This document shows positions 33,251 through 55,639 of a stretch of DNA of 64,000 nt, in pieces (the first letter of the stretch is position 1; each line of letters starts with the position of its first letter). The DNA is from Cyathus striatus (Eukaryota > Basidiomycota > Agaricomycetes > Agaricales > Nidulariaceae), in NCBI GenBank assembly GCA_025738555.1, contig JAOVFP010000009.1:4402001-4466000 (forward strand), given 5' to 3'. The translations under genes and the position numbers were made by a program. The notes under the pieces were generated by a model. That model did not search any database. It was not told the origin of the DNA and saw only the letters and a program-made list of their open reading frames with translations.

Positions 33251-33256
33251 TATATA

Positions 33257-33566
33257 CAGTGCCATCCGGGATTGACGAAATTATGTGTATTTTAGGTATG
33301 TTATACTACTGCTTAAGAGCTTCAAAACGCGTTATTAAACATAAAATTATGAGCTGTGGGTCATTTGTAATTGTCGAGGCGTTCTGGCGACTTTCGCTAA
33401 AAATAGCCAAATGATGCGACAAATAGCAAAAGTCGCCAGAACGCCTCGACAATTACAAATGACCCACAGCTCATAATTTTATGTTTAATAACGCGTTTTG
33501 AAGCTCTTAAGCAGTAGTATAACATACCTAAAATACACGTAATTTCGTCGATCCCAGATAATGTGG
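33257..33566. mobile_element. Near-perfect foldback MITE (TA duplication)
   Basis: About 130-base arms (33,257-33,397 and about 33,436-33,566) are nearly identical inverted copies around a loop of about 40 bases. Flanking TA is present on both sides (33,255-33,256 and 33,567-33,568). The left end is CAGTGCCATCCGGGATTGAC. In the inner 115 bases the arms differ at only a few positions, mostly T against C in a CpG context. TA duplication and CAGT ends fit a Tc1/mariner-derived MITE. A transcript across it would fold into a long hairpin. Confidence 0.88.
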
Positions 33567-33589
33567 TAAAGGTCGCAATACAGTCAAAA

Positions 33590-35511
33590 CCTCACCCTTT
33601 TTTGTCACTTCTTGTAGCATTATTCTGTGCATATAAAAATTTGCAAAAATCATAATCATCTGGAAGTGTATCTGCACTATGTAGTGAACTCACCTCCCCT
33701 GGGAATGAAGACAGAATCTGAGAGTTCAGAGCATCCACATCATCATTTCAACTTGACAGAATCATTTACTCTGCATAGTACTCATCAGCATGTCCTTCAG
33801 CTGATGAAAGTCCAGGGTAGATAGTTGAAATCAGTGACTCCACAGTATTGGAAGTGCACTTGAAGTGGTTTGGAATTTGGATATCCTCATTAATAGTGTG
33901 CTCTCCATGTCCAACACCCAGTTGCCATAAAGCAAATTGTCATTCAGATTCATTCTCCACATTCAGTCACATGTTATGTTGCAAGTGAATCACTGTAACA
34001 TCTGCCCAAAGATCAGATCTCTGAAGGCATGCTATACAATTTGAGGTCAGCTCCCTCACTGCTGCCAGTCACCTCCAAACACTACAGTGCATCCTCCAAA
34101 TGGTCATTCATCATGATGAAGGCCTTTGAAAGTGTGACTCACTGCCTCATGGGTATGTTGGTGCTGCATTGGTGCCTCATCCCAAATCACAACATCTGCC
34201 TTCTCAATCAACCCAGCAAGATCAGACTTCTGTGCAATATTGCACATTGATCTCTCATTGATGTCAATTGGTATCTTGAACACGGGGTGAGCTGTTTGCC
34301 CTCCAACAATTAGAAGAGCAGCAATCCCTGATAATGCAACAACAATCACTATCATTCCCTCCCTCTGAAGGTAATAGCATAGTGTGTTGTACACATAGGT
34401 CTTTCCTGTTCCTCCTGGGCCATGAAAGAAGAACAGTTCCCCAGATTTTGACTCAATTGCCTGCACTATCTGATCAAAGGCTGCCTGCTGCTCATCATTC
34501 AAAGTTGCAAGTCACTCCTGACCCAAAGCATGCTGTTCCACTACATCATATGCAGTGTATACTGCAATTAATGGATTGTTTGTCTGGTCAACCCTCCTGT
34601 TGTTGGCTCACTGCTCCCATTCACACCAGTTTTCTGTTGGTAGTGGCATATCTTTCCATTCTGACAGAGTCTTTCAGAACTTATTAGAAATTTATCAATC
34701 AGATACAGCCCATAATCATAGATTTATTGCTCTGTAGAATCTGCAAGATCAAGGTGTGTTTGAATAATATGTCCCAGATTATTGCAGATGTGTTCCTTAA
34801 ACTCATTCCAGAGTCCCACATAATCCACAGGTCTACAGTCTCAAAGAATTGTCCCAAACAGGCTGCACAGCTGATAACCTGTCTTCATAGCAGCAGCATC
34901 TAGAAAACACTCTCTCCATTCACCATTATCCTGCAGAAGTCCTAAAGCCAGATATGCCTGTCTGAATGTATGATGCACAGCTCCATCAACTGTTTGCAAG
35001 TCAGCAAAGGATTTTGCACCCTTGACCACTGTCAGCAATGTTCGCAGGTAGAATCACTCCCCAGCATTTGGATGAACAAAGTATGTCCATCCAATGGCAA
35101 ATCCTCACTGTCAAACTGTCCACTTGTGCTCATTTTTATTCCACACAAAGGTATTGGACATGTCCTGCTACAGAATCTCCTGTGCCACTCAGTATTCAAT
35201 GTTGGCCTTAAAGTAAGCAGTAAGAGTGGTATCTTGGGTTGATGCACACTCCATCACCTCCTGCATATCTTCAGCATTCTGATCATATATAACAGATGGC
35301 TTATTTGGAAGATGAATTGACAGCTGAACTACATTTGAGACCTCTTCATGCAATTTAAATGCAAACAGTCACTACAGGGCCTCACAGGGAGAGACATGGT
35401 GAGCATCCAAGAATGTCTTCATCTCATCTAGTTCCCTTGAATACTCCACTGTAGCATGATTATAGCCTTTGAAAATGTACTTGTAAATGTACTTGATTGC
35501 CTTGATAGAGG
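33590..35511 (-). pseudogene. Helitron piece 5: Rep tyrosine motif and PIF1-type helicase
   Basis: On the minus strand, right after the 9-bp junction, comes IKAIKYIYKYIFKGYNHATV, which holds the two-tyrosine motif of Helitron Rep. Then LFAFKLHEEVSNVVQLSIHL, FVWNKNEHKW, FYLRTLLTVVKGAKSFADLQ and the helicase follow. The helicase shows GPGGTGKT (Walker A, near 34,415), VVIWDEAPM (Walker B), PFGGCTVVFGGDWQQ and NDDVDALNSQILSSFPGEV. Several stops replace Arg, as CGA-to-TGA changes would give, so it is inactive. The frame fades at about 33,590 next to the foldback MITE. The last helicase motifs and the Helitron 3' end (CTRR with hairpin) are missing. Confidence 0.88.
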
Positions 35512-36604
35512 AGAACTTGTCACTTAGCCACATGTTTCAACTGACTATCAGAGAGTCAGTTGATAGTATCAGAGAGTTGATTGATAGTAAGATGAGACTT
35601 AGTTGAGAGTCAGGTGAGAGTCAGGTGAGAGTTTTGAGAGTCAGGTGAGAGTCAGTTGATAGTCAGATTATAATTACATACAAAATAGAGTAATTGCTAG
35701 TCTCACCTTACTCTCACCTTACTATTAGCTTACTCTTATTCAATCTGGTATCAGATACTAATCTGAGAGTTGATTGATACAATTTCACCTGACTATCATT
35801 TGACTATCAATTAAATTTGTATGAGTTATTGGTGTAAAATAGACTCCATGTAGATTCCACCTGATCACTATAGTTTCCCACAGTCATTACACATGTCACA
35901 ATGTGTGACATGTGTGACATGTTGAAAAAAGTGGACTTTCTGAATGACACACTAGAACAAGTGTGCACAGTTATCACACTTATATAAACTATAGTTTCCC
36001 ACAGTCCTCACGCATGTCACAATGTTGTGACATGGGTGACATGTGTGACATGCTAAAAAATATTAGAAAAAGCATGACATGTTGGGAAAAATATGACATG
36101 CTGGGAAACTAAGCTGTACCTAGACTCTATTGTCACACATGTGTGAAAGTGTGACATGTTGGAAAATGTTGGAAAAAGCGTGACATGTGTGACAAGCGTG
36201 GGAAAAATGTGACATGTTTAGAAAATTGTCACATATTATAACCATCACACTTGCCACACTTTTTCCAACATGTCACACTTTTCCCACGCTTGTCACACAT
36301 GTCACGCTTTTTCCAACATTTTCCAGTATGTCACACTTTTCCCAACATTTTCCAACATGTCACACATGGAGTTAGGTGAGAGTCAGGTAAGAGTCAGGTA
36401 AGAATCCAAGCTAAGCTCAATACTAATTTCAGGTTTCAACTGACTCTCAGTTGACTCTTGAGACTCAGTTGAGAGTCAAATGACAGTCAGATGAGAGTCT
36501 AACCTGACTTCTGAAACTTAGTTGAGAGTCAGATGAGAGTCAGGTGAGACTATTGATACTTGTATGAGAGTCAGTTGATATATGTGTGGGAGTGACACAT
36601 ACAG
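35512..36604. mobile_element. MULE-like non-autonomous element with 9-bp duplication
   Basis: A perfect TGATAGAGG lies at 35,503-35,511 and 36,605-36,613. The ends are inverted and imperfect: TTGTCACTTAGCCACATG against TGTCACTCCCACACATA, followed on both sides by TCAACTGAC. The interior is built of GAGAGTCAG-type tandem repeats and a palindrome of GTGACATGTTGGAAAA units (36,144-36,335). It has no coding capacity. A 9-bp duplication with TIRs fits the Mutator superfamily. Confidence 0.82.
36144..36335. repeat. Palindrome of TGTGACATG/GGAAAA motifs
   Basis: Inverted arms at about 36,144-36,218 and 36,255-36,335 share GTGACATGTTGGAAAA, AAAGCGTGACATGTGTGACA and AGCGTGGGAAAA. It sits inside the MULE-like element and could form a long hairpin. 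Confidence 0.75.
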
Positions 36605-37120
36605 TGATAGAGGCAATGCATTCAGCATTGATGTGGCACTGGTACTTCCATAACAGATATTGATTGTATGGTACAACCCAGCAGTTATTCACTGGAGTCC
36701 CATCCCTGGTCATGGGCTGAAATCTTGTGATCTCCCTCCTTCTCAGAACAGAATATGAATCATCTGTGATGATGGTCTTATTCTGATAAGCCTTTGGAAA
36801 TCCCTTTGAATACTTGCCACCTTCCATGCATGACTGATTGCTGCCTGGACCACAGGGTTTGTGAATCATGGTTCTCAGAATCAAATTCATACAGCTCAGG
36901 TTCAGTGTCAGAATCAGAAAGCTCAGCAGTGATCATGCTGTCAATGTCCTCTGGAGTGCACAACTTGCTCTCAGGAGCCACAAACACAATTAAATGCATA
37001 TGTGGCAGTCCATGCTTCTGGTATTCAATTATATGAATATATGCAACACATTGCCCAAAGATGCCCTCCTGGTAGATATCTAGAATGATCTGCTGCTGAA
37101 TTTGACAAAACACCCAAACT
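36605..37120 (-). pseudogene. Helitron piece 4: Rep HUH catalytic domain
   Basis: The minus strand reads QIQQQIILDIYQEGIFGQ, then VAYIHIIEYQKHGLPHMHL. The HMH within GLPHMHL is the HUH metal-binding motif of Helitron Rep. Next come TPEDIDSMITAELSD and, in a shifted frame, MIHKPCGPGSN, CMEGGKYSKGFPKAY, WVVPYNQYLLWKYQCHINAE and CIASI, where the MULE-like element cuts in. HUH Rep nicks and rejoins one DNA strand in rolling-circle transposition. One frameshift (around 36,850) and the split tyrosine motif show it is dead. Confidence 0.88.
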
Positions 37121-37400
37121 GAGATCTTTACCCTCCCCCACCCTTTTCACATGAATTTTACATGAATTTCATGTGAAGTTTACCTGAAGTTTTTGACCTC
37201 AATTTTCTCTGATTTTGGGGGAGTCCCCTGAAAATCATTTCATGTGGAACAACATGAATAGGTGAAATTCACTTGAAAAACCCCACATGAAATTCATGTG
37301 AATTACACATGAATTACACATGAATACATGAATATGTGAATTATATGTGAATTAACCATGTGAATTTCATGTGGCATTCACCTGGAATTCAGGTAACCAT
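37121..37400. repeat. Subterminal TTCACATGAA palindromic repeats, left end
   Basis: Many copies of ATTCACATGAA and TTCATGTGAA in both orientations follow the G/C-run terminus. Similar blocks occur at 45,540-45,865 (right end) and at both ends of the 39,623-40,918 element, about 39,650-39,925 and 40,700-40,890. Subterminal repeats of this kind are typical transposase-binding sites, which is inference. Confidence 0.75.
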
Positions 37401-37458
37401 GATTCTGTGTTTTAGTACTAGTACATGTAACAGTACTTACTTTTATTAAAAAAGAAAG

Positions 37459-37551
37459 TGGCACCATCATGAATTGAACTCTCGACCATGTTCTATTACA
37501 TAAGCATAAGTTCCTGCATTCAAGCAACTAATACCATTACACCATAGAAGC
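37459..37551 (-). other. tRNA-like module (A-box and B-box), element-borne
   Basis: On the minus strand, TGGTGTAATGG (37,533-37,543) fits a Pol III A-box and GAGTTCAATTC (37,471-37,481) approximates a B-box, about 50 bases apart. The segment ends GGTGCCA. Acceptor pairing is poor, so it is not a working tRNA. An equivalent module occurs in the related element at 39,990-40,075. Confidence 0.55.
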
Positions 37552-37659
37552 ATTATTTCAAAATGTTATCTCAGTGTATAAGTTGACCACACAACTGCAT
37601 GCGCCTGTCAGACTGTTATGGTCTATGGCATCTTCCAACATTATGACTGCCCTGTCATT

Positions 37660-37765
37660 GCACACCCCATCCATCATTACCCTTCCTCCCCTTCCCTCTC
37701 CTTTCCTCCCCTTTCCTCTCCCCTTCTCTCTTCTCTCTCCTCCCCTCTTTCTCTTCTCAATTACT
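37660..37765. repeat. Polypyrimidine tract
   Basis: About 100 bases of almost pure C/T (CCTTCCCTCTCC-type units). A similar tract lies at 40,205-40,316 in the short relative, at a comparable distance past the tRNA-like module. Confidence 0.6.
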
Positions 37766-38234
37766 GGTGACATCAAAGGCATACAACATGACTGGCACCA
37801 CACAAGGTGAGCGAGGAGCAGCAGAGGAAGTAGGGTGAGGGAGAAGAGGTGTAGGAGGAAAATGTATGGTGGAGGGAGACAGAGAGGGGTCATGAGGACA
37901 ACAAAGGGGTCAATAACAGGTGAGTCAATGACAATAGGGACAATGTCGTTTAAGATAAAGATAATCTAAGGTGCTAACAGGAATCGACTTTGTTCGTGTT
38001 ACAACACCTGAGTGTCAGGAAATATTTAGTGAGGATATTCTTGGAATTTTAATTGGTGATCTTGTACAGCAAAAGCTGTATGAATTGTATGAAACTGGGT
38101 ATGAAGGGTAATGTACAGCAAAGGCTGTATGTAATGACAAATATAATGAGAGGGGTATAATACACACTATAGACTTGGTGCTATATCTGATGTGTATATT
38201 GTATAGATCAATGCTTAACTTGCTTAAGACTTGA

Positions 38235-38355
38235 CCTATGACTGATTCTGCTTCTGTTACTGTTACTCTGACTGTGACTGTGACTTCTGACTAATACTGT
38301 GACTGTTACTAATCTGTTTACTGTTGCTGATACTGATACTATTTCTGACTGGACT
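38235..38355. repeat. ACTGTG microsatellite-like tract
   Basis: Degenerate runs of CTGTTACT, CTGACTGTGACTGTGACT and GATACTGATACT. No coding signal. Confidence 0.5.
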
Positions 38356-38699
38356 GGCTGTGCTGATAAAACTGTACTAATAACTGATGACTAATGACAA
38401 ATGGGTGAGACTACTGGGGAGTGGGTAGCTATCTATCTACTGCCAAACTGTCCTCCTTATATACCTTTTCCCAACCTGCTTAGTAATCCAATTCCCACTC
38501 TACCATCCTACATTGTTCTCCAAAATGAGTAGTGTGCAAGTGTAGATTTTAGATCTGAGGCTGTACAGGACAATGGTATTTGAGGGTTAGTCAGCAGAGA
38601 ACAATAGCTTATGTTAGAACAATGTGTAATGAAGTACATTGTTCTAAATAAAGAGCTACATTGTTCTGGGCAAGAACAATAGGAATCCATTTTTATAAC

Positions 38700-39095
38700 A
38701 ATGGAGTAGTGAACAATAGTTACCTATCTGCCATTGTGTAAACAATGGCAGTGAAAAACAATGGAGTTATATATAAATAGTTCCACATTGTCTTCAAATA
38801 TTAAATGAACAGTACAATGCAGTTCATTTATTATGAACAATGGTGGTGAAAACAATAGTGTCATATATAAATAGTTTTTGCATTGTCCTCAGACAATGGG
38901 TAAATTGCACAATGTAGTTCATTAGTTATGAACAATAGCATTGAAAACAATGGAGTTGTATATAAATAGTTATCTCATTGTCTTCAACAATAGGTGAATA
39001 GTACAATGCAGTTCATTTATTATGAACAATAGGATTGAAAACAATAGAGTTGTATATAAATAGTCTCTCATTGTCTTCATACAATGAATGAACAA
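38700..39095. repeat. Four tandem 94-95-bp units, each with TATAAATAG
   Basis: TATAAATAG recurs at about 38,771, 38,866, 38,961 and 39,055. Each unit also has GAACAATAG, GAAAACAATGGAGT, CATTGTCTTCA and ACAATGCAGTTCATT. ACAATG and its inverse CATTGT alternate, so single-stranded DNA could form small hairpins. Upstream sequence (38,510-38,700) holds scattered ACAAT/ATTGT motifs of the same kind. Confidence 0.8.
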
Positions 39096-39354
39096 CACAA
39101 TGAAAGAGTGTCATATTATCCTTTGTTAGTGCATTGTTTGTGCAAGCGATTAATTATTGATATGTGTATGATGTTTAATGGTGATTTAAAGTTATTTGTT
39201 CATGTAAGGTATTGGTTTGTTCATGTATGGTATTGGGTATATTTGATTAGTAGTGTATTGTATCATGTGATGGTGTGAAGTATTCAGTCATGTGACATGA
39301 CAGTGCAATTTCTTTAATTGTGGTATACAGTGCATTTGCATGCATTATATATAA

Positions 39355-39614
39355 TCAAAAATCATGCCTGACAACAATAGTGATGAAATCTAACGACAGC
39401 CACAGTGCCCCCATCCTCCCTTCTGCATTGCTACACCCTGGTGCCCCTGTTCTCTCCTCTGCCTTGTGACACAGCAACACAGTGTCACCTAGCCAGTGGG
39501 AACAGAATTCTCTCCATATGCATCTATTCCCACTGTGTCGGCCAGCACCCCCATCCCCCCCTCTCATTGTGACAACAACAACACAGCACCATGTTGGTCA
39601 ATGCCCCTGTCCTC
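39355..39614. repeat. Minisatellite, left part
   Basis: Degenerate units contain GTGCCCCCATCCTCCC, then CTCTGCATTGTGACA and ACAACAACACAG. The array is interrupted by the short KDZ-like element and continues at 40,927-41,270 with the same units. Confidence 0.6.
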
Positions 39615-39989
39615 CCCTCATCAAGCTCTTTATGCTCCCCCCCCCTTACACATGAATTTCACATGATATTCACATGAATTGGTAAAGTTCATGTGAAGTT
39701 CATGTGAAATTTAGGTGAACTTTTTCGCATTATTTTTGCTGAATTTCAGTGAGAACACTGCTAATAATTTCACCTGAATTTCAGATGAATTTCACATGAA
39801 CTTCACAATTCATGTGAATTTCAGATGAATAATTCACTTGATCTTCACATGAAATTTTTCACCAGATTTTCATGTCACTTAGTGAAGTTCACGTAAATTT
39901 CACCAGAAATTCACATGAAGCTGAGCTTCAATTGTATTTCATAGTGTTGCTTACTAATAATAAAAATAAATGTACATAGTAAATAATGA

Positions 39990-40075
39990 CTCCAGTCAGA
40001 ATTGAACCAACAGCCTCAGAGTGATGACTAATAGTTTTTCCACAGTACAACAATTAACCACTACACCATGAACAC
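39990..40075 (-). other. tRNA-like module with near-consensus A-box and B-box
   Basis: On the minus strand, TGGTGTAGTGG (40,058-40,068) matches a Pol III A-box and GGTTCAATTCT (39,998-40,008) matches the B-box. The T-arm can form five pairs with wobbles (GTTGG/CTGAC). The acceptor stem pairs poorly, so a functional tRNA is unlikely. It lies about 370 bases from the element's left end, against about 340 in the large element. Confidence 0.6.
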
Positions 40076-40354
40076 TTGTATAGAAAAAATATTTCCCACA
40101 CTATATACCCCCATCAACCCTCCGCTTTCTAATACTTTGTCACATGATTGAAATATCACATGACCAAAACATGTCGCACCATTGTTGATTCTTGCTTCTT
40201 GCCACATCATCATCATTCACTCCCTTCTCCCTCCCCCTCCCCCCTCTGTTCCACTCTTTGATCCCCCACCCTCACTCCTCCCCTATTTCACTCCCTCCTC
40301 CTCTTTCTCCATCAAGAACAAACACAGTAACAATGAGAGCACAGGAAAGCAGAA

Positions 40355-40620
40355 GGCACACAGCGAGCGCGAGGGGCGGGATGGGCGGGATGATGAGTGT
40401 GTTAGGGCACACAACGAGCACAGGGAGTGGAATAGCAAGCGGAGGGGCGGGATAGTGAGCAGAGAGGCGGGATAGCGAGTGGAGAGGCAGGTTAACAAGT
40501 GGGATGGGGTGCACAGCGAGCAGAAGGCAGGGATAGTGAGTGGGATGGGGCATGCAGCGAGCGGAGGGGCGGGAGGCATGGGAAAGCAGGGGATGGGACA
40601 TCGAGTGCAAGGGCAGGAAA
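40355..40620. repeat. GC-rich minisatellite (GAGGGGCGGGATAG-type units)
   Basis: Units of about 22-26 bases such as GCGGAGGGGCGGGATAGTGA repeat with changes about ten times. Base composition differs sharply from the AT-rich flanks. Open frames here reflect the repeat. Confidence 0.65.
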
Positions 40621-40926
40621 TTGGGGGACATTATGTAATACTATTGTTGCTTTGTAATATGTAAATTGGTCACATGATCAATAAATAAATTCATTTTCTC
40701 CATGTTTTTAAATGAATTTCACTCAATTTTTTATGTGAATTTCACTATATTTTCACTTTAATTTCATCTAAAATACATGAAAGTTTATGAACCTATGCTT
40801 TTTAGAAAATATTCAAAATCACATGAAATTCATGTGAATTTCATGTGAATATGTGAACTCTTGGTGAAATTCACATGAATTCATGGTGGGTGAAGAGGGG
40901 GGGGGGTGTAAAGTACTGCCCTCAAC

Positions 40927-41270
40927 ATGACAATGACAATGCCACACCATGTTGGCTAGTGCCCCCATCCCTCCCTCCTCGTCATGACAACAACAACACA
41001 TTACAGTATCCTCTCCCACCCCTACCACATCACCCAGTGCCCCTATCCTTCCCCCTGCATCGCGACAACAACAACACTATGTCACTCAGTGCCTCCGACC
41101 TTCCCTCTGCATCATAATGACAGTGATGACAGCCCCCTCCTTCCCTCTGCATTGCAATGATGACAATGCCATGCCACACAGCCCCTATGGTGAGAACAAC
41201 AGTGAGGGCAGCATCCTCTCCCTGTGCCACTGCCCTCCCCTCTGCACTGTGATGACAGTGATGTCAAGCC
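40927..41270. repeat. Minisatellite, right part
   Basis: Continuation of the 39,355 array, with units such as AGTGCCCCTATCCTTCCCCC and ACAACAACAACAC. The break between the parts is exactly the short KDZ-like insertion. Confidence 0.6.
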
Positions 41271-41273
41271 ACC

Positions 41274-42350
41274 CTGGAATACTTTGAATTTTGCTGATTA
41301 TATTGATAATGAGAACAACTCTCATATGGATATTCAAGAAGAAGGACTAGCATATATAATCATATCTGATAATTCTCCAAATGTCAACCCCACTTTGTTG
41401 AATATTGAAACTTCTCCAACAGCCATTCCTGTTGTTGTGAACAACCACCTTAAATCTGTACTTGAAGATATTTCTCAAATGATTCCTCATATTAAAGGTA
41501 ATATTATTATGAAATTTTTTTTCATTTTCACTAATATGTATTGTAAAACAAGATCATCAGATTAGAGTATTTGATACCTGTTGAAATATCTGGATTATGT
41601 GAGGGCACTACAGTAGTATATGAGATGCAGTTACTATTGAGTGACGCCCACATAATCAATACTTAGCTATCTTTCTTGCTGCAGTAAGAATTTTATTTAT
41701 ATATCTATATTAAAATACTAATTCTTGTGTCAGACTGACCCTATCAATAAACATATTGACTACAGTGAGGCTCCAAGTGCTGTTAGCACAAATGAAACTT
41801 CAGCTCATTCTAAAAGTGAGGATAATAAGTCTAACTATTCAGTTGAGAACACCCAAATTAGCAATAAGTTATCTCCAAGAGAGAGGACCATTATATCTAT
41901 TTATGAGGTAGACCAGTCACTCCTTGGACTTAGTGGAAAATGGTCAATTCAGGAGGCATGGAAAGTTTACAATGAGGTTAATAGGGTTAGATGCTTAGTG
42001 AACATAAATTCTAAATCCTTGCCTAAACCATCATCATTTGACATTTATAAACTTTTTGGGATTAAAACTACTGCATGGCACAACTGGGATGTTGTTCTGA
42101 AGAGACTTTCCAACTATCCATACATGGCAGAATGGCTAAGTGATAATAATCCTGACATGAATAATACACGTGAGCTTTGGGGTTTGGAAAAGTCTTCTGG
42201 ATTTACAAGAGTCAATTTAGAGGACTGGATGGATGCCAGAGACAAGACTAATAAAGATAAAGCAGCTAGTAAAGAGAAGGCCAGTGATTCAAAGCAGAAA
42301 TCAGCCAAAGGGAAGGACAAGGGGAAATCAAAGAAAGGAGCTGGAATTAA
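41274..42350 (+). pseudogene. Accessory ORF of the KDZ element, function unknown
   Basis: A first exon-like frame (41,274 to about 41,505) is acidic and Asn-rich. After a probable intron ending near 41,732, the second frame is Ser/Asn-rich and then reads IYEVDQSLLGLSGKWSIQEA. It continues through LPKPSSFDIYKLFGIKT and NLEDWMDARDKTNK and ends in a Lys-rich tail (KGKDKGKSKKGAG), a likely nuclear-localisation signal. The frame is cut at 42,351 by a solo LTR. I do not recognise the family. Its position upstream of the KDZ gene on the same strand suggests a partner gene of the element or the broken 5' part of the same gene. Confidence 0.45.
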
Positions 42351-43094
42351 GATTACATACCAATTCCCTTCCTACTGGAAGACAAATGTGAAGACACCTG
42401 GAGGGCATGGGAGAACTATAATGGAAACCCAAAGTGAGTACGGGTATGGAAATGTAGAGCAGGAGTGTGGAAAGAACTGTGGCTTCAGCTTGTGTGCTGT
42501 GCTGCCTGGATATCCCCAGGGAATGATTCATATTTTGAGGAAGACGATATAAGACAAAGGAAATGTTCCAGAGTATAAGAGAAAGCTTGGCCACTACACT
42601 AGGCAGTGGGAGAGAAATCCGAAGGAACTTAGAAGTAGAAAGAAGTGTATGAGGTTTATATGAATACTGAAGACTACCTAGTACATCTGGAAGACTACTT
42701 ATACTAAGTAGGAACCTATAGGTATGAATGTAGAAGTATAATGCAAAGGACAAGTCAAAGGAGTAAGTAGGAAATAAAGTCTGGGCAAAGTGGAGTAGGG
42801 GCGCAAATGACGTGCTCAGAATGAAGAATAAAGAACTAATCTACAAAGGCCATAATGAAATGTACAAGTGAGAATGGAAGAGAGGAGTAATATAATGATG
42901 ACACGGTGAGGCCGTCATAAGAGAAACTAAGTATCTGGGATACCCAATAGAAAACCCAATGGGTTCCGGGTACGTTCCTGGGCAGGAACGTCGGAAAGTG
43001 TAAATCCGAAGCAGGTACATTCCGGGAACAGTCTGGGTGTGTCGGAAGGTCATGTGGGAACGTCGGCACGATGTATCCAGACATGGATGTAACA
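42351..43094 (-). mobile_element. Solo LTR, family S1, older copy
   Basis: This is an inverted relative of the LTR at 46,198-46,952, similar end to end. The left end reads GATTACATAC, where the other copy has TGTTACATAC. The right end is GGATGTAACA. Many CpGs of the other copy are TpG or CpA here. No clear duplication: flanks ATTAA and GTTGT differ. It interrupts the coding of the KDZ element. Confidence 0.75.
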
Positions 43095-45465
43095 GTTGTA
43101 CATCATGTGGTATTAAAGTTTGTATCATGTAATTTTAGTTTCTTTAATGTTGTCATTTGGTTGCTTCAAATATGCATTTCCCTATTGCTCAGGCACTCAT
43201 ATTTAGTTGCATTGTATTACTTGCCAATGGCCTATGCTATAGGAACTGAACAAGAGTTTCTTATGTTAAAGTTTAGTCAATTTAGTCAGTTTATTGAAGC
43301 AAACTTTGGATCAAAGATTAGCCTATCAACAGTTATATTTTTGCTCTTTTCTCTAACAAGTAATGTTGAGCTGTTAAATTTACATGCAAGACAACAGTAT
43401 CATGAAGGAAATAACAGAAGAACAACAACACTAACTGCTTGGATTAATACACTGTCAATGGCTGTTACATCTTCTCTTGGTAACAAAACAAAATATTTAT
43501 TTCAAGAAAATATAATTCCAGATCACTATGATGATGATGAAATTAACTATCATATTTCTACAAAACTGGATGCATTTTCCAAATTTCTTAAATTGCATTC
43601 ATATAATGAGACAGGGCACTATATTGGAGAGCTAGGACCTGTTTCAGAAACTAAATTAACTCCAGTATGAATGATATGTCCATTATATATGTGTTGCAAT
43701 GGTGCATCATGTGATGGGTCTGCATTAACACAAAATTCAAAATATCAAGATATACCAAAAGTTACATTAATTGAGAGTACAAAAATGTATCATGAATCAT
43801 ATGTACTAACAGGATCTTGCTCTAAGTGTAAATCATTATACTATGCTAATCATAAATGTATATCTATTACTAGTCAGAGACCACAAAAAGAATATTTAAA
43901 TAAAGCACATTATTTTAAAATAGGTACTCATCTTTGGGTGGATCAAGTATTCTCTAAAGCAATAATGCATGGTATATACAGTTTTCATGCATATGCTGAA
44001 TATTGGAGTAATAGCTTTGGAAATAACATTGAAATTAGTTGCAAACAAATTTGGCATGCCTTTATAGATGATTCTATTCGGACTGTAAGCTTAATTACTG
44101 GTAGGCAACTTACTATTGATGATCATCTACCAATTAATGAAATTACACATTATGCATTTGAGCATCTTGGGGCAAATGGAATTGTTAAACCTCCATCAGA
44201 GCACAGCTGCTTTGAATGTACTCAAAGGTACAAGTCTACAGCTGATAACATGACTAACTACAGAAGTAATATTACAACAGAAAATATTGCTCCAGTGAAG
44301 ATGATTGTAGTAGATGGTGTTGTAATGGGCCCAACTATATGGGTATTTATTTATTTATTATAAACTTAGACCTAACAATGATTTAGCACTCGCTGCAGGA
44401 AATTGCTTCTATAAGTGCGAAGATATAATGAAAATATTTTGATTTCATCATATCTTCTCAATATCATCAAAGGAAATAGAAGCAATTGCCCATGGTGACT
44501 GTGCAATGGAGAGTTGTCATACTGAAGTTAACAATTATTGTGGTGGTGTATTCTGCAGACATCATAACATACAATATGGACCCAAATGTCATGTTAAGGG
44601 TTGTGATGCACAAAAATTTGCAAGTACAGAAGCATGTGAGGCTCATAAAGATATGTGGAATAAGTATAAGTCAAATTACAGTTCAGCAAGTCTTTCTGGA
44701 CTAAAAAGAGCACTGCAATGCAGAAATGAAAATCTGGCATGGCTACCTAATGTTAATCAACCACAGCAGCCACATGATGAAGAACAGAATGATGATAATT
44801 CTGATACCCACAAGTCTCATTTTTCCCCAAATCACTATTATTGTGTTGAAACTGTGTGTGCTCCATGTGGAGTTGTTATTGCTTGGAAAAAGTTTGTAAA
44901 ATCTGAGTCAACAGCTAATACCATGGAGTTATTAAATATGATTTACCCAACACCTGACTCATGTCCAGCATATATATGTATTGACAAAGCCTGTATGATT
45001 CTATGTTCAGTTCTGAAAAATATTCTTTATCATCCTTGGCTACTGAATAGTTGATTTGTTGTTGATGGATATCACTATACAAATCATAAGGCAGATGATG
45101 ACCTTTGTTGTACATTTTGCAATCCTGCACCAAGTGATGGTTCTGCTCCTAATCTTGTAATAATTGAACATGATCGGAATGGTCAACCATATTACAGGAG
45201 GGCTTTTAATATACAGGTAAGATATAAGTATTAAAATCTTAATAACTATTAATTCATTATCAGGCATGTGAGCAGCTCAATTCTTGGCTGGGTGGGTTTG
45301 AGTCTATTCTCAAATAAATGACAGTATCAAACTTTAATTGGTTTCTACATGCAATGTTGGTTTATCACACACAACATGTTTTGGATAGACAACAGCAAAG
45401 AGCAATAAAGACAAGGCTCAGTGATGATCTACCTGAGGATATGGATGTGAACATATAATAGATAA
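43095..45465 (+). pseudogene. KDZ transposase-associated protein with CxC5/CxC6-type Cys clusters
   Basis: The first block (about 43,225-43,668) reads AIGTEQEFLMLKFSQFSQFI and is helical. The second (43,671-44,345) holds CCNGASC, CSKCKSLYYANHKC and QIWHAFIDDSIRTVSLITG, then CFECTQRYKS. The third (44,500-45,460) reads MESCHTEVNNYCGGVFC, HHNIQYGPKCHVKGC, EACEAHKDMW, then CAPCGVVIAWKKFVKSES, YICIDKACMIL, VDGYHYTNHKADDDLCCTFC and ACEQLNSWLGGFESILK. The paired Cys clusters before a conserved FxxxDxxC-like core are the pattern described for CxC5/CxC6 clusters associated with KDZ transposases in mushrooms. Several stops, and an insertion-like or intron segment at 44,346-44,480, break it. The full KDZ catalytic core is not visible. 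Confidence 0.75.
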
Positions 45466-45880
45466 ATTTACAATATTCTCTAACTTTCATATGTAATTCT
45501 AAGTTCTAAATCTTTAAAATACAATTTTTTTGTAGGAAATGATATATATTTCATGTGAATTTCATTTTTATTTCACATGAATATCACATGAATATCATAT
45601 AACCATTGCACTGTACATGCATATGAATTTGACTTGTATTTCATGTGTACTTCACATGAATTTCACATTTAAATTTCACTTAGTTTTCACCTTGAATTTC
45701 ACCAAATTTGTGTGATTTTGGAACATCCTAGATGAAGGTGAAATTCATGTGGACTTCACATGAAAACATGTGAATTTCATGTGAAAATGTTACTTAAATG
45801 TGTATTTAATGTGAAATTCACATGAATAGGTGAAGTTCACATGAAGTTTAGGTGAAAGGGTGGGGGAGGGATAAGTACTG

Positions 45881-46197
45881 CCCAAACCACAATGTCTGGC
45901 TAATCATGAGCTTCCACTCCTTCAGGCAAGGCACTCTTCACATCTGGGTGATGGGGATTTATGGTCACTGTGAGGACATAGTCTGAAAACTTAAAGTGCC
46001 TATTGATAGCCAGTGCATTCTGACAGTTCTGCTGCATGAGTCAAGTGCTTCCTGCAAAACTGGATGGAATGATCACCCTTTTCCCAAGTTCCTACTCTTG
46101 CACATCTGGATTAACTGCAATGGCATCCACTATTCCCTGATAGGTTTCAGTATGGATCTCTGGTTGATGACCTTCAATCCAATGCAACCAACCCTGC
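45881..46197 (-). pseudogene. Helitron piece 3: conserved block before the HUH motif
   Basis: From the LTR junction the minus strand reads GWLHWIEGHQPEIHTETYQG, then RVIIPSSFAGST, LMQQNCQNALAINRHFKFSD, YVLTVTINPHHPDV and PEGVEAHD. A stop then precedes PDIVVW, where the KDZ element interrupts. This is the block of Helitron Rep proteins with the pattern LPSSF-x-GS, then Q-x-A-x-AI, then T-x-NP. Stops after QE, after GST and after AHD fit decay of CGA or similar codons. Confidence 0.9.
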
Positions 46198-46952
46198 TGT
46201 TATATCCGTGTCCGGATACATCATGCCGACGTTCCCACGTGACCTTCTAACATACCCGGTCCGTTCCCGGAACATACCCGCTTCGGGTTTACTCTTTCCA
46301 ATGTTCCTGCCCGGGAACGTACCCGGAACCCGTCAGGTTTTCTATCGGATACTTTGGATACGTAGTTTCTCTTATGACAGCCTCACCACGTCATTATACC
46401 ATTACTCCTATCTTCCATTCTCACTTGTACGTTTCATTATGGTCAATGTAGTTTAGTTTCTTATTCTTCATTCTGAACGTGTCATTTGCGCCACTACTCC
46501 TCTTTGCCCAGTCTTTATTTTGTTTACTTACACTTAGTATTCTGTCTCCGGATTAGTATCTACGTCTTACTAGTACATATAAATAGTCTTCCAAATGTAC
46601 TAGGTAGTCTTCAGTATTCATATAAACTCTGTACACTTTCTTCCTACTCTAAGTTCCGAAACCTGCTCTGGGTTTTCCTTTGGGTTTCTCTCCCACTGCC
46701 TAGTGTAGTGGTGAAGCCCTCTCTTATACTTTGGAACATCTTCCTCTGTTGTATATCATCTTCCTTGAAATAAGAACCATTCCCTGGGGATATCCAGGCA
46801 GCGCAGCACATACGCTGAAGCCACGGTTCACTTCCGCACTTCTGCTCCCATTTCAGTACCCGTACTCACTTCGGGTTTCCGTTATAGTTCTCCCACACCC
46901 TCCGGGTGTCTTCGCATTCGTTTCCCACTGGGAAGGGAATCAGTATGTAACA
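46198..46952 (+). mobile_element. Solo LTR, family S1, with 5-bp duplication
   Basis: It begins TGTTATATCC and ends GTATGTAACA, with CCTGC at 46,193-46,197 and again at 46,953-46,957. TATAAATAG on the plus strand at about 46,579 may be its promoter. It is rich in CpG compared with the surrounding gene, so it is the younger S1 copy. Its size (755 bases), TG...CA ends and 5-bp duplication define a solo LTR of a Gypsy- or Copia-type element. It interrupts the Helitron gene between VQ and GWLHW. Confidence 0.92.
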
Positions 46953-47558
46953 CCTGCACAGTGCATGCCCATGTATCCACAGTATACTCCTGAAACAGCT
47001 TCTTTGTCCTGAATTGATGAAGATTCTGACCAACACATAGATGGATGTAATAGCAAAAATGCTCAATTTGTGAGACATACTTGCACTTCCTTGTTGTGGG
47101 TGCATCCTCCTCCTCTCCTGGTGGCCTGTTGGGTACATTATCTACATTATCTACCTCCTCCACACCATCATATCTAATACCAGGCTGCCATTCAAGTTGA
47201 CCTTGTGGCCACAGGATTGGATAGTGAAATGACCAATACATTGCATTCACTTCACTGATTCTCTCCAGTCCACCATCAAGGTGATGCATGATAACCTCCT
47301 GAGGTCCCTCCACCCAATTACCATCACCAAGCAAAAGAATTGCAATCTCATTTTCTGTTGGAACATTGTATCGCCATTAGTCTGTCTACAGAATGACAAA
47401 TGGCAAGGTGAAAATTGCAAGCAGGGCTATTGTTCTGTATTTTCTCATAGGCCTTCTGATAGACTGATGCCTCTGGATGATAATGATAGAGAACATCTTC
47501 CAATATTCTCATGACATTAACAACCATGTTAAGATTATGATTTGCTGGATGACTATTA
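46953..47558 (-). pseudogene. Helitron piece 2: N-terminal Helitron-like domain
   Basis: After the Tc1-like insertion the minus strand continues SHPANHNLNMVVNVMRILED, VLYHYHPEASVYQKAYEKI, then in a shifted frame WSFHYPILWPQGQLEWQPGI, RYDGVEEVDNVDN, RKCKYVSQIEHFCYYIHL and LFQEYTVDTWACTVQ up to the LTR. This matches the Helitron N-terminal domain with its YPxLxPxGxxxW and QYxVDxWa signatures. One or more frameshifts are present (near 47,340). Confidence 0.88.
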
Positions 47559-48584
47559 CAGCTGTTTGTAAAAAGGTTGGCACTTGTGTGCATGAACAAA
47601 ATACATTTGTAATAAAATAATAATGTGATCGAGCTGCCACTTTTGGCCAAACTGAGCACTCTGGAGTCTGGTTGCCATTGAGATTTATCTACTGCTAGCT
47701 TCTAACCAACCCCTAACCAACCACACACCCCTGGCCAATCTCTGGCACACATAACATGGGCTACCATGCCATATAAAATGATGTCAAATAGGCTGCCATT
47801 AGGCTATATGAGCACAATAAGCTGGAGATGGTTGATATATAGGCTCATCAAATCCCCTCCCACAATTTCATGTGGTCTATTCTGGATATAGACTGACCAT
47901 GAAATGTGAGAGGGGCTTAGACAAAAGTAGGAAAAGTGAAGGGCAATGTAAAATGATGACTTAAATTGCACCTGATGCCTCAGGTTCGACTTCATTGCAT
48001 GCCATTGATAGAGACAAAATGGTCCCCAAGGTTAATGCTTTCCACTTATGTAATAGTTACAAAAATATATTGTGAATAGAGTCCATAGCAGCCTTAACAC
48101 CAAAAACTTTTGTGTACTTGAAGCACTTCAAATTATTTGAATGGAAAAATCATTTGAGTCGCTGGATTGATGGGAGATGTCACAGAAACAAGTTGCATCA
48201 AAATTACACATTGTCACGTGCCTTAATATTTTTCGCACTCGTGACATCAATGGTGACATGTTCCTCCAGATTCCCCCATAAACTCACTTCCCCACTTCAC
48301 TGGTTTGGTATGGCACACAAGAAGTTGACCACAGATCAGAAACTCACTTGAGCAGTCAAGTCACTTACAGGGATTGGGTTTAGGTCTCCCAACGAATTTG
48401 TACAGGCTTTCTACAGCTCAGAGAAACTTGCTACACAAGCACTGCACTTCAGAGAAGATGCATCCTCCTTGTGAACACAGAAGGACCCCCATTATCCTCA
48501 TTTACAGTGACACCTGATATACAGTACTACTGTGGCTTCCCATCTAAACCAACCTCACTCAATGTACATTTCTCATTGAACCGT

Positions 48585-48902
48585 CTAACCTTGTATAAAG
48601 TAAGTCCCAGTTCCCGCGATCACAATAGCATTGTTCCCCTCTGCCACTTTCTCAAACACCTTCAGTTGCCATGGATGGGGCTTGTACCCATATAGCTCCT
48701 CCGTGACACTAAAAATTATTTCTATCAGGATGATCTTGTGAATTTGAGGCCAAATTTTGCGTGCAACAGTTTTCTGGCTAGATTGTGGTGTTGCTGCTGG
48801 GGTTTTTCGGCACTGTGGTGTTTGAAAAGGTGTGGTGGGTTGAAATGGTAGTGCAGCTGTTGAACGTGGCAGCATACTTGGAAGGTGTGGGTTCAAATCC
48901 AT
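48585..48902 (-). pseudogene. RecQ-like helicase fragment
   Basis: The minus strand reads LYGYKPHPWQLKVFEKVAEG, then NNAIVIAGTGT. This resembles the N-terminal motif 0 (a conserved Gln in PWQ) and start of the Walker A (AGTGxGK) of RecQ-type ATP-dependent helicases common in fungal mobile DNA. After AGTGT the frame changes to YFIQG and is lost, and no DEAH motif was found downstream. An upstream Pro/Thr-rich segment belongs to the same frame. It is probably captured and broken. Confidence 0.55.
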
Positions 48903-49159
48903 GGACAGATGGCATAAAATCTATTTTCAGCAGACACACTGTACCAATGGATATCATGCACACTTTGATAACTGACTGTGACAATCTCTCTGTGACCTCA
49001 CCTGACCTCTCTGGCATATAAAATTTTGTATTATGTAATAAGTACCTGTATTGGTATCTAATGACTTTTGTTTGTATTACATTGCCCTATCAAAAGACCT
49101 ACTTTGGTACAAGACTGTCCACGTGCATGCAAATGTTTTTGGATCGAGACTAGGTTGAT

Positions 49160-50015
49160 ATATTAGATTGCCTACACATTAGCTGAAGAACTTTTTTTTG
49201 GATTCTCAAGCTGTGGAGAGAAACCGGCAACATAATCCATCATACTACTGGTCTCCCCAGGCACCCTTGCATTTTTCATCTTGACGATATCGACTATCTT
49301 CTCCAAATTGTCAAACATAGATCAGATTGGTTCTTAGATGAACTTAGAACTCTTCTTAGAACCAATTGCTTCATTGCTGCACATTTCACTACTATATTTC
49401 AAGCTCTGGAACATGCTGGTGTCTCTTGCAAAAAGTTGAAGATCACTACTGAAAGGAATGAGGAATGGAGCGGATTTTGTGTGCTGAATGGCTGCCTACA
49501 CTCCTGAGCAACTTGGCTTTTTAGATGAAGTATCAAAGGATGAGAGGACCAGTTATAGGTGGTATGGGCAATCACAAAAAGGTACTTGTGCAGTTAAGAA
49601 AGGAGTCTTCATATGTAGGTGATGCTTTTCTGCAGAAGGCCTCCTTACAATTGATGGGATGATAAGCAACACTGTGGTGGAAGGATCTCTCACAAAGGAA
49701 GGATTTCTTCATTATCTTGAGCATTTGGTCATGCCATTGTGCACCCATTTCCAGGCCCACTGAGCATTCTCATCATGGACAATGCTCAAATACATCAAGG
49801 CCCTGAGATTGGAGAACTATTGGAACTACATGGTGTGTGACTGGAGTATCTGCCACTATATTCTCGTGACTTCAACCCAATTGAGGAGGCTTTCTCTGAG
49901 GTGAAGGCCTTTATCAGAAGGCATGCAATTCTGATGACAACCAATGGTGATGGTATGATTTGTGAACTAATGGAAATTATGAACATTATTACAGATGACA
50001 ATGCATTGGGTTAAT
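49160..50015 (+). pseudogene. Tc1/IS630-type transposase (DDE_3-like), decayed
   Basis: A helix-turn-helix remnant reads FWILKLWRETGNI, followed by LDDIDYLLQIVKHRSDWFLD. The catalytic part reads QLGFLDEVSKDERTSYRW (first Asp), GLLTIDGMISNTVVEGSLTK, then in another frame LSILIMDNAQIHQGPEI (second Asp) and YSRDFNPIEEAFSEVKAFIR (Glu after NPIE). All three acidic residues survive in text, but stops near 49,485 and 49,620 and a frameshift near 49,760 kill it. It lies centrally in the TA-flanked element and is presumably its own transposase. Confidence 0.8.
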
Positions 50016-50103
50016 TTATGCACTCTGGGTATTGTTAGGTTCTAAATTGATGTATTACTTGTACAAATTTATTGGTATCAGTGCAATGATTGTGATAGCG
50101 GTT

Positions 50104-51925
50104 CTAATTGTCTACTCTTTGTGCCCACATCTCAATAGCATCTCTAATATCTGCTATTTCTCCTTCTCTGAACCCTATTTGCCTTAAGCCTGTAACCGTC
50201 ATGTAGTGAAATCCTGTTGTATTGCAATAGGCATTTTCTGTAAAGCGAGTATGAATGGCATTTGTAAGCTCATACTGAACACAAAAATCTTGAAGTAGGA
50301 GTTTGGGGCCAGCCTTGAATCCCATAGGTATCAAGTTGTCAGTTGCAACAACTTGAGTTTGAGGCATGGCTGGTGTGTGAGATGGATGTGGTGTTGATTG
50401 CTCAGTGATCTGAGGGATGTTGCATAGAGCATTAAACATATCATTTGGTAGGACAAAATTGATCACAGGCAATTCTTGACTGGCTGGAGCAGCTGCCCCT
50501 GGTTTTTCTTTTGCAGCAGCATTGAGCTGAGCTTGGAGAAGTGATGATGGTGCTGCTTTGATTGTTACTTCATCAAAAGGGCAGTGATTTGGGGGAATAT
50601 CAAGTGTAGCTGTGGGTACTTCTTTACCAATACTATGAAGCTACAATTAACAGTCAATTAGGCACTGTAATATAAATTGTAATGTTCAAATGATGCTTAC
50701 AATTGCAGCAGCCCACTTTTCAAAATGTTCATTTGTGAGTCTAATATGCTTTCCACTATCAGGAGGAACAAAACAGTGTGACCCAAAGCAACCAGCAGCA
50801 CTACATTCCCAATGTGCTCAAAGGGCTTGAATATTTTCATTCATTGCATAATTCCCATTGAGCTCCTGTGACTTTTCTCTGCCTATCATTCAATGAGCAA
50901 TCACAAATCAGTTCATGCTGATAGAAGGGTAAGATTCAATACTGCACCCTTGTTTTCTTCCTCTTATTCTTCCTCTTCTTCTTATCCAACTTTCTTGCAC
51001 CCTCATCCTCATCAGTGTCAGTACTACTAGAAATCACTTCCTTTTGCTTATTCAACCTTCCAGAGTTTTCCTTTTGTGGATTAGAATTCTGAAGGACATC
51101 ATAGCATAAGGAAGCAGGTGCCACTGGTTAGCAATTAGCATACAAGCAATGAAGCACTGCATACCTCTTTGTCCATGTCACTGGAAACTTGCTGATTGAT
51201 GGTAATCTGAACATTATATAATGTTCCTATTCACTTTCCTTTCGTGAAATCTAGCAGAGATTGGTAATCTTCCTCATTCGTGAGTGGAATAGGATTTGGA
51301 ATGACACTGCATATGTGATATAAAACTCTATAACTTGAAGTTGGAACATCTCCAGTCTCATCTTTGAATAGTGTATTCATAATTTGGATCTTGAGTTAAT
51401 CCTGGAAGTCCAGCCATAACATATCAGCTCTCAAAACCAAGACTCAGTTCTCAGCTTCATGTTTTCCTTTTGGTTTTGCAAGTTCCTTTAATGAAAACAG
51501 TGCCAGTGAGTAAGTTATTTTGTTGTCAGCAATTTTAGTATGAGTATCTGATGTTTCAGCAGTAGCTATGAGTAACCTGTCAGTTGCCTTCAATATGAAT
51601 AACATCTAGAACAGACTGAGACTAGTATTCTCTTTTGGGCATCCAGTTCTTCTCTTTTCAGGAATGGGACTCTCAGCCTCTATATCAGACTCCTCTATGC
51701 CATTCTCAGCATCACTCCCACCTCCTCAGCACCTAGAGTCAACAGTGTTCTCTCCTGATGTAAAATGTTGAATAATTGGAGGTGTTGCATCATCCGGTAA
51801 GAAAAGATCATGGTCCACAGCCAGTTGGCACATATGTGAAAGAAGATCCAGTCCTAAGGTACCAATGTGGCTGGTGTTGGTGAGTGTGGTAGATGTAGAA
51901 CTATTAAGATACTTGGAGGGCATGT
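50104..51925 (-). pseudogene. Cargo gene: basic stretch and SAM-like C-terminus, unknown
   Basis: On the minus strand the start is MPSKYLNSSTSTTLTNTSHI, then DLLSHMCQLAVDHDLFLPDD. Middle blocks read KITYSLALFSLKELAKPKGK and SSYRVLYHICSVIPNPIPLT. A lysine-rich KKKRKNKRKK segment follows (about 50,950), a likely nuclear signal. The C-terminal exon (50,472-50,104) reads KLLLQDFCVQYELTNAIHTR, then FHYMTVTGLRQIGFREGEIA and DIRDAIEMWAQR, which has the helical pattern of a SAM-like domain. Probable introns and several stops separate the blocks. I do not recognise the full protein. It lies downstream of and convergent with the transposase, inside the same TIRs. Confidence 0.5.
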
Positions 51926-52122
51926 TTATAAGAATAATAATATATATATAAGCAGGAGACAGCTATACAGGTCATAAAGTGTGGGGTGAACAAAGGTAGA
52001 ACAAGTCTCTACTGGAGAGCACTACAGTCTGGCCAAAAGCGGCAGCTCGATCACATTATTATTTTATTACAAATGTATTTTGTTCACATGTGCAAGTGCC
52101 AACCTTTTTGCAAACAGCTGTA

Positions 52123-53371
52123 ATTTGATCCTGAGCTGAAGGTGCCTCAGCTGCATTATAAATGTAGAGTTGAGCATATTTTCTGGGAAGACCTTGGCAG
52201 GGTAGGAGTAATCCAGCAAAATGAGTAACTTGACCTCCAATTTTGAAAACATATGGACCTCCTGCCTGGATGGAAGCATTTTTCTCAATTCTCATGAATA
52301 TCATGGCAAAGGCACAGTTGTATTTATGAATATTCTTCTGGAAATTCTTGTTTCCATCCTTAGCAAGCAGCTCCATCAATTCTCTGGGTGATTTCCCCCA
52401 ACCTGGAATTTTAACCTTTCCAGTCAGACAGCAACTTCCAAATTGAAGGTGCTCCCTGGTGTAAGCAGTCAAATGTTCAGCCTTCCAATGCAAAGCATCA
52501 CAGTCAGGACAGACATCAGTGAATGGCCCAAGTGTGAATGTAGACCAATTACAATCAAATGGTCAGAGGGCAATAGGAATGTGAGGAAGTGGTGGTGGAG
52601 GTGGAGGAATGTCTGGTATATCAGCAATGAACATGTTTTGATGAAACTGTAGTAGTGGAGCTGGTATTGCTGCCATATGTACATCCCACTCAAAATATAT
52701 GGGAGGCTATAATATGTATTAATATATCATAATAGATAGATAAGAGTTTGGTGAAACACATACAGCAGGAATTTGTTCAATGAAATGATGTTGCAGAGGT
52801 GGGGGGGAGGAGGATGAGCTGGAATCACCAGAGGAACCCATTGAAGTACAGAATAATTTTGAACTTCAGGAGGATTCTGCCAAAGGACACATAATGGAGG
52901 AGCAGGAGCCCAGAATGGCTGAGGAGGAGCAGGCTGAAGAGGAGCAGGAATAGGTGGAAGATTAATCTGGAAAGGGGGACAAAAGCAGGAGCAAGAGTAG
53001 GAGCATTTCCTTGAATATTTGGAGGATGTTGTGTGTGAAATGGTGGGACAGGAATGGGAGCAGGAGCATTTACTTATGCATTTGGAGGATGTTGTTGATT
53101 ATTGAGGATTCCATTGCACATTGGGAACAGCTGGTGGGGGAGGTGCATTGATATGGGAAATAATTTATAGTGCAATATTGTCAACCTGTTGAACATGTTG
53201 ATGGTGATAATGCAGGTGAATTGCCTGTGCAACAATTGGAGGAATCCACTGTATATTTTGATGATTTGAAGGAGCTGCATTATTATTAATTCCCTCTTGA
53301 GCTCTATGCCTACCCCTTCCCCTTCCAATAGGTGGCAGTAAGGGAGAAAGGCACACCCACATGGCTTTCAA
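52123..53371 (-). pseudogene. Helitron piece 1: N-terminus with zinc-finger-like motif
   Basis: The minus strand reads NWSTFTLGPFTDVCPDCDAL, then HWKAEHLTAYTREHLQFGSC, CLTGKVKIPGW, KNIHKYNCAFAMIFMRIEKN, PYVFKIGGQVTHFAGLLLP and KYAQLYIYNAAEAPSAQDQ. CPDCDALHW and FGSCCLTGKV form the Cys-rich start typical of Helitron Rep proteins. The upstream part (52,560-53,371) is strongly Pro-rich with stops, consistent with a decayed N-terminal extension. The gene's 5' end and Helitron terminus (TC start) were not identified. Confidence 0.85.
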
Positions 53372-54500: not shown

Positions 54501-54509
54501 TCATCTGAA

Positions 54510-55632: not shown

Positions 55633-55639
55633 TGCTTCT

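What the first reader, a model, noticed from the sequence alone, without database searches (positions are those of the whole stretch)
33590..53371. One Helitron gene split into five pieces by four independent insertions
Concatenating minus-strand pieces 53,371-52,121, 47,558-46,953, 46,197-45,881, 37,120-36,605 and 35,511-33,590 gives one Rep/helicase in the right domain order (Cys-rich start, N-terminal domain, HUH, two-tyrosine motif, PIF1 helicase), about 4.6 kb. Each break is an element with its own hallmark: TA, CCTGC, CCCAAAC-plus-one-mismatch, TGATAGAGG. Four transposition mechanisms hit one gene, giving a relative timeline of insertions. An annotation pipeline would report unrelated fragments.
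Basis: partly seen in the sequence, partly recalled or inferred. Interest (0 to 1): 0.9.

Follow-up and report, generated by a model that had tools for sequence, protein, structure and literature searches.

The report
Helitron relic broken by four insertions
A dead copy of a rolling-circle jumping gene, apparently in a mushroom-like fungus, was cut into five pieces by four later jumping elements and also lost its tail; this is a well-documented example of an ordinary kind of transposon pile-up.

Summary
Nine intact paralogues in the same genome (ORFs of 1459-1488 aa) map in order onto exactly the five minus-strand pieces named, and the paralogues examined carry uninterrupted sequence at all four break points. 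Six of six independent database proteins tested map the same way. So one Helitron RepHel gene was split by four insertions: a TA-duplicating inverted-repeat element (4.56 kb), a solo LTR (755 bp, CCTGC), a KDZ-type element (8.76 kb, 8-bp duplication with one mismatch) and a 1.1-kb 8-bp-duplicating element.

Corrections. The copy is incomplete: its last ~168 residues and 3' end are gone, at a junction with a truncated repeat (33,654/33,655). The "9-bp" duplication is 8 bp in its family, and that element's ends resemble the KDZ family's, so there are probably three element classes, not four mechanisms. Two inserts carry nested elements. Side-by-side inserts give no order; CpG decay and shared duplication changes give only a partial one.

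Breakage is unusual among the copies examined (27 of 29 others unbroken over 2.9 kb), but the phenomenon is known: an LTR element breaking a RepHel ORF is published for Pleurotus (PMC4289320, passages).

The parts
52121..53476 (-). Helitron piece A: 5' terminus (TCTTATATATAATGAG..., from about 53,476), leader and Cys-rich N-terminus (FTDVCPDC..., FGSCC)
   Evidence: tblastn/blastn to paralogues; 5' terminus by match to the terminus of other copies
47559..52120 (.). Insert 1 (4562 bp): 96-bp terminal inverted repeats 47,559-47,654 / 52,025-52,120 (91%), TA duplication inside a TTAA target; no Pfam hit in the ORFs tested
   Evidence: relative (94-95%) without the inner nest at C13:3478335-3481579 with the same ends and TA
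47840..49152 (.). Nested element (about 1.31 kb) inside insert 1, flanked by GGTTGATATA on both sides; absent from the C13 relative
46953..47558 (-). Helitron piece B (paralogue residues about 211-411; start of Helitron_like_N)
46198..46952 (.). Insert 2: solo LTR, 755 bp, TGTTA...TAACA, duplication CCTGC
   Evidence: 40 matches scored of 637 candidates in the genome, itself included; of 10 sampled relatives 5 have 5-bp duplications, 4 have a polypurine-like left flank, 1 has neither at its own two ends
45881..46197 (-). Helitron piece C (paralogue residues 410-514, middle of Helitron_like_N)
37121..45880 (.). Insert 3 (8760 bp): KDZ-type element with subterminal TTCATGTGAA repeats; duplication CCCAAACT / CCCAAACC
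   Evidence: family borders at about the same bases; 8-bp duplication exact in 6 of 9 sampled family copies, 7 of 8 bases in 1, none in 2
43671..45054 (+). CxC5 (43,671-44,363) and CxC6 (44,443-45,054) frames of the KDZ-type element
   Evidence: Pfam PF18718 E 3e-17, PF18721 E 7e-8
37944..39374 (.). Nested element (about 1.43 kb) inside insert 3; 98-99% identical to several other copies over its larger part
39622..40920 (.). Nested short element inside insert 3 with KDZ-like ends (approximate borders)
42353..43094 (-). Diverged second LTR copy (79% to insert 2, inverted) nested in insert 3; no clear duplication
36605..37120 (-). Helitron piece D: HUH motif (LPHMHL)
   Evidence: (Helitron_like_N profile 144-191)
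35511..36604 (.). Insert 4 (about 1.09 kb; no frame of 90 aa lies wholly inside): duplication TGATAGAG, ends GAGAACTTGTCAC...GTGACACATACAG, TTGAGAGTCAG-type repeats
   Evidence: 8-bp duplication in 10 of the 12 family copies (window copy included) whose two ends were located, of 20 loci
33655..35511 (-). Helitron piece E: two-tyrosine motif (KAIKYIYKYIF) and PIF1 helicase up to paralogue residue about 1310
32102..33654 (.). Truncated repeat abutting the broken Helitron 3' side; in the three other copies sampled it continues beyond this point, so 33,654/33,655 is taken as a deletion or rearrangement junction, not an insertion end

Best explanation
A single autonomous-type Helitron (RepHel) copy, inserted with its 5' TC terminus at about 53,476 on the minus strand, became inactive and decayed by C-to-T change at CpG sites. 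Four elements of other kinds inserted into its coding sequence, each duplicating its target: a TA-duplicating inverted-repeat DNA transposon, an LTR retrotransposon that later recombined to a solo LTR, a KDZ-type DNA transposon, and a short 8-bp-duplicating element that is probably a non-autonomous relative of the KDZ type. Two of the inserts received further insertions. A separate deletion or rearrangement fused piece E to a neighbouring truncated repeat and removed the C-terminal ~168 residues and 3' end. Shown: one family, collinearity, empty sites, duplications, missing 3' part, CpG loss. Inferred: that decay had begun before inserts 3 and 4, the KDZ relation of the short element, the recombination origin of the solo LTR, and the deletion mechanism.
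For: Collinear mapping of nine intact paralogue ORFs and of six database proteins; empty sites in 7-8 of 8 paralogues at each break; borders and duplications shared by other members of each insert's family; Pfam and structure-database matches of the intact paralogue to Helitron_like_N, PIF1 and Helraiser 7lcc over most of its length; window copy changed at 63 of 131 conserved CpG positions against 164 other changes in 3470 columns, plus five indels, four of them frame-breaking; CpG observed/expected 0.017 against 0.35-0.42 over 4 kb of 8 paralogues.
Against: No reads or second strain were available, so assembly error is not excluded by a direct test. The short element's class rests on ends and duplication length only. 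The CpG comparison cannot date the KDZ-type and short elements because their sampled relatives are CpG-poor too. No displaced 3' part of this copy was found in the window, so deletion and translocation cannot be told apart. Insert 1's CpG loss is measured against a single relative.
Confidence: 0.95

Rival explanations
1. The five pieces come from two or more different Helitron copies that landed or recombined next to each other.
For: The genome holds 112 PIF1 matches of varying identity, many in clusters.
Against: The pieces cover successive parts of the protein with little overlap beyond the target duplications, all on one strand, with flanks that meet at the paralogous empty sites; the coding pieces are 86-93% identical to one and the same paralogue, L033.
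Confidence: 0.02
2. The inserts are cargo or introns of a variant Helitron that moved as one unit.
For: Helitrons can capture and mobilise gene fragments (abstract of PMC4289320, listing).
Against: Each insert has its own target duplication and family ends elsewhere in the genome; 27 of 29 other copies examined are unbroken over 2.9 kb, and none of the 8 paralogues read at the four sites carries an insert there (one of them not placed at one site).
Confidence: 0.02
3. The 1.1-kb element is a Mutator-like element with a 9-bp duplication, or of another separate class, so there are four distinct element classes.
For: In this copy nine bases (TGATAGAGG) are repeated on both sides.
Against: Ten of the 12 family copies with both ends located have exactly 8 bp once the element's own first base is set aside; two have no duplication. 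Variant starts GAGGTC/GAGATC equal the KDZ family's starts.
Confidence: 0.25

Closest known systems
LTR/Gypsy insertion breaking the RepHel ORF of HELPO1.2 in Pleurotus ostreatus PC15 (Castanera et al. 2014, PMC4289320; passages; author name recalled)
   Same: A fungal Helitron RepHel ORF interrupted by another transposable element
   Different: In the passage seen one LTR element is described; here four inserts of probably three kinds plus loss of the 3' end in one copy
HELPO2 Helitrons of Pleurotus (PMC4289320; passages)
   Same: 5' T(C/G) and 3' CTTG ends, AT insertion, RepHel ORF; the present family also ends CTTG and starts TC
   Different: No sequence comparison with HELPO2 itself was made
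Helraiser (7lcc)
   Same: Aligns with residues 74-927 and 1004-1477 of the intact paralogue, including HUH and two-tyrosine regions
   Different: Bat element with CTRR end (recalled); this copy is dead and its family ends in CTTG
KDZ (Kyakuja-Dileera-Zisupton) transposons (PMC12730594; passages)
   Same: CxC5 and CxC6 domains; 8-bp duplication, as stated there for Zisupton and for a Dileera-lineage family
   Different: No KDZ transposase core was found in the frames scanned here; Kyakuja is reported there with 7-bp duplications

Membership tests
Helitron (RepHel) | HUH Rep domain | tested here: met
   Helitron_like_N in the paralogue E 1.8e-48; its C-terminal part in piece D E 4e-11
Helitron (RepHel) | Two-tyrosine motif | tested here: met
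   KAIKYIYKYIF in piece E, the same stretch in the paralogue aligned with Helraiser KSVKYLFKYIY; the catalytic role is recalled
Helitron (RepHel) | PIF1-type helicase | tested here: met
   PF05970 E 4.7e-44 in piece E; the part holding the Pif1 2B domain is missing from this copy
Helitron (RepHel) | 5' TC terminus | tested here: met
   TCTTATATATAATGAG at 53,476 with A before it
Helitron (RepHel) | 3' hairpin plus CTRR | tested here: not met
   Absent from this copy (truncated). The family ends in CTTG after a GC-rich, hairpin-like stretch seen by eye; CTTG is reported for HELPO2, so membership of the wider family is kept
LTR retrotransposon (solo LTR) | TG...CA ends and 5-bp duplication | tested here: met
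   TGTTA...TAACA, CCTGC on both sides; 5 of 10 sampled relatives likewise
LTR retrotransposon (solo LTR) | Relatives as paired LTRs with an internal part | tested here: inconclusive
   Same-strand pairs 6.8-9.4 kb apart on C8, C9, C11, C2; the C9 pair (2781066, 2788981) has GAACT on both outer sides; internal reading frames not examined
KDZ transposon | CxC domains typical of KDZ proteins | tested here: met
   PF18718, PF18721
KDZ transposon | 8-bp target duplication | tested here: met
   Exact in 6 of 9 sampled copies; 7 of 8 bases in the window copy
KDZ transposon | KDZ transposase core domain | tested here: inconclusive
   Not found in the five plus-strand frames of insert 3 scanned; other frames not scanned, copy decayed
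Mutator-like element (insert 4) | 9-11-bp duplication (recalled) | tested here: not met
   8 bp in 10 of 12, none in 2
Tc1/mariner or other TA-duplicating transposon (insert 1) | Transposase of the family | tested here: inconclusive
   No Pfam hit in two frames of insert 1 proper and four of its nest; class left open

The most novel reading that the evidence does not exclude
Silenced, CpG-decayed Helitron copies act as landing pads that later elements prefer, so that breakage piles up on a few dead copies while most family members stay unbroken.
Probability: 0.08. Interest if true: 0.5.

Novelty: new member of a known kind. Interest (0 to 1): 0.27.

Why it matters
It is a clean worked case in which scattered fragments can be resolved into one gene plus a set of insertion events, using paralogous empty sites instead of reading by eye. 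It shows that domain scans see only fragments: in the pieces scanned, Pfam recovered only 48 of 191 profile positions of Helitron_like_N, because that domain is split over three pieces. It does not change the understanding of Helitrons or of transposon nesting.

Tried and rejected
Timeline from CpG observed/expected alone: it gave an attractive order (Helitron 0.017; insert 1, KDZ-type backbone and short element 0.06-0.13; solo LTR 0.92), but relatives of the KDZ-type element (0.06-0.12 in 3) and of the short element (0-0.11 in 18, first 500 bases) are CpG-poor too, so these two cannot be dated this way. What stands: insert 1 without its nest has 14 CpG where its one relative has 110 in the same length; the solo LTR is changed at 10 of 54 conserved CpG positions, the lowest fraction among the five copies compared (relatives 12 of 55 to 25 of 70). 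Change at other sites was not used for dating, since the relative sets differ in size and closeness.

The abutting repeat at 32,102-33,654 was first taken for a fifth insertion. That was dropped because three of three sampled relatives continue past the junction and no duplication is seen.

A base rate from a whole-protein genome search could not be had (answered 'busy'). The 29 other loci already fetched were used. They are the best-scoring of the 111 other matches there, so they lean towards well-kept copies.

No RNA family or tRNA was found in the window. One paper search, for CpG depletion in basidiomycete elements, returned nothing. Searches were seen as listings only.
Full report
Setting. 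The window is G000:C9:4402001-4466000 of a 107-Mb, 24-contig genome. The KDZ-associated domains and named fungal relatives of the Helitron protein, e.g. Amanita muscaria 45% and Candolleomyces eurysporus 56% partial (plants and animals are also among the hits), suggest an agaricomycete fungus. That is inference; no name is given.

Check of the observation. The PIF1 piece has 112 matches of varying identity in the genome, itself included. Twelve copies were fetched; nine have open frames of 1459-1488 aa, the other three 1180, 794 and 437 aa. The longest frame of each copy was compared with the window by tblastn, and all twelve copies by blastn, with nothing joined. Each of the nine intact frames gives hits in one order on the minus strand through all five pieces; the 437-aa frame of L041 matched only the leader, although its DNA matches all five pieces. 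Six proteins taken from 76 database hits, 39-55% identical to the query paralogue, map the same way. The intact paralogue has Helitron_like_N at 377-558, PIF1 at 1019-1227 and Pif1_2B at 1319-1364, and aligns with Helraiser over 74-927 and 1004-1477.

Empty sites. At every break, paralogues read straight through where the window has an insert: ACCCTGCTCAGTG for the solo LTR, CCATTAATTCG for the TA element, CACCCGAACCACAATG for the KDZ-type element, CCTTGATTGATGCAATG for the short element. Eight of 8 paralogues show this at three sites, and 7 of 8 at the solo-LTR site, where L042 was misplaced. At the KDZ-type site 7 of 8 paralogues carry a CG where both window duplication copies have CA; most simply, that change came before the insertion. 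At the short element's site both copies differ from all 8 paralogues at the same two positions, likewise most simply older than the insertion.

The inserts. Insert 1 (4562 bp) has 96-bp inverted repeats and a TA duplication in a TTAA target; a relative on C13 has the same ends and target and lacks an inner 1.3-kb element. Insert 2 is a 755-bp LTR with a CCTGC duplication; 40 matches were scored of 637 candidates. Of 10 sampled relatives 5 have 5-bp duplications, 4 a polypurine-like left flank and 1 neither; that one and a copy 7.9 kb away carry GAACT on their outer sides, as a full-length pair would. Insert 3 (8760 bp) carries CxC5 and CxC6 and shares its borders with family copies; of 9 sampled copies 6 have exact 8-bp duplications, one has 7 of 8 bases, two have none. 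It holds three nested elements: a 1.43-kb one, 98-99% identical to several copies elsewhere, a short one with KDZ-like ends and a diverged LTR. Insert 4 has no frame of 90 aa wholly inside; of 20 loci, 12 had both ends located, and 10 of these show an 8-bp duplication, two none. Its family's starts (GAGGTC, GAGATC, GAGAAC among others) match the KDZ-type starts (GAGGTC, GAGATC). I take it as a probable non-autonomous KDZ-type element; no transposase links them.

Paralogue residues 1311-1478 and the 3' end were not found in the window. Helitron similarity stops at 33,655 against a repeat (32,102-33,654) that has 13 comparable copies elsewhere. In three of three sampled relatives that repeat continues past this point, and a repeat to its left continues past 32,101 in the one copy sampled. 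So 33,654/33,655 is best read as a junction made by deletion or rearrangement. The 5' terminus is present at about 53,476, with about 1.1 kb of leader found in other copies missing.

Decay and order. Against eight paralogues the window copy is changed at 63 of 131 conserved CpG positions, with 164 other changes in 3470 columns, and has indels of 2, 1, 1, 18 and 1 bases. CpG observed/expected is 0.017, against 0.35-0.42 in 8 paralogues. With family controls, insert 1 has far fewer CpG than its one relative (14 against 110), the solo LTR is changed at 10 of 54 positions, and the KDZ-type and short elements cannot be dated. Hence a partial order, by inference: Helitron decay began before insert 3, changes preceded insert 4, and insert 1 is probably older than insert 2. 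A full timeline is not available.

Is it unusual? Of 29 other copies fetched as 3.4-kb stretches, 27 are unbroken over about 2.9 kb, one has an internal duplication, and one has a deletion and an insert of about 0.4 kb. So this copy is unusually broken, with the caveat that those are the best-matching 29 of 111. Nested insertion as such is ordinary, and a broken RepHel ORF is on record (PMC4289320, passages). I make no claim that this case is absent from print.

Verdict. Real and correctly read in its main claim, with corrections on completeness, duplication length, number of element classes and timeline.

Noticed in passing
L031-L041 (3' ends) and coordinates on C15 668-719 kb, C17 3.145-3.188 Mb, C9, C1, C3: The Helitron family occurs in head-to-tail clusters: in 7 of 11 copies examined the 3' end (GGCTTG) is followed directly by a TC start like that of the next copy. 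Tandem Helitrons are known elsewhere (PMC5148889, passages).
   Followed up: partly
window 1-24000 versus 24001-64000: CpG observed/expected is 0.71-0.88 in the 4-kb bins of the first 24 kb and 0.04-0.48 in the rest, a sharp border to CpG-poor, repeat-rich DNA.
   Followed up: no
window 33264-33559: Near-perfect 296-base palindrome inside the truncated repeat; related palindromic copies occur at many other places.
   Followed up: no
window 37944-39374: A 1.43-kb element 98-99% identical to several other copies, nested in the KDZ-type insert and probably a recent mover.
   Followed up: partly
window 54509-55633: Cluster of direct and inverted repeats of about 70-110 bases just beyond the Helitron 5' side.
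   Followed up: no
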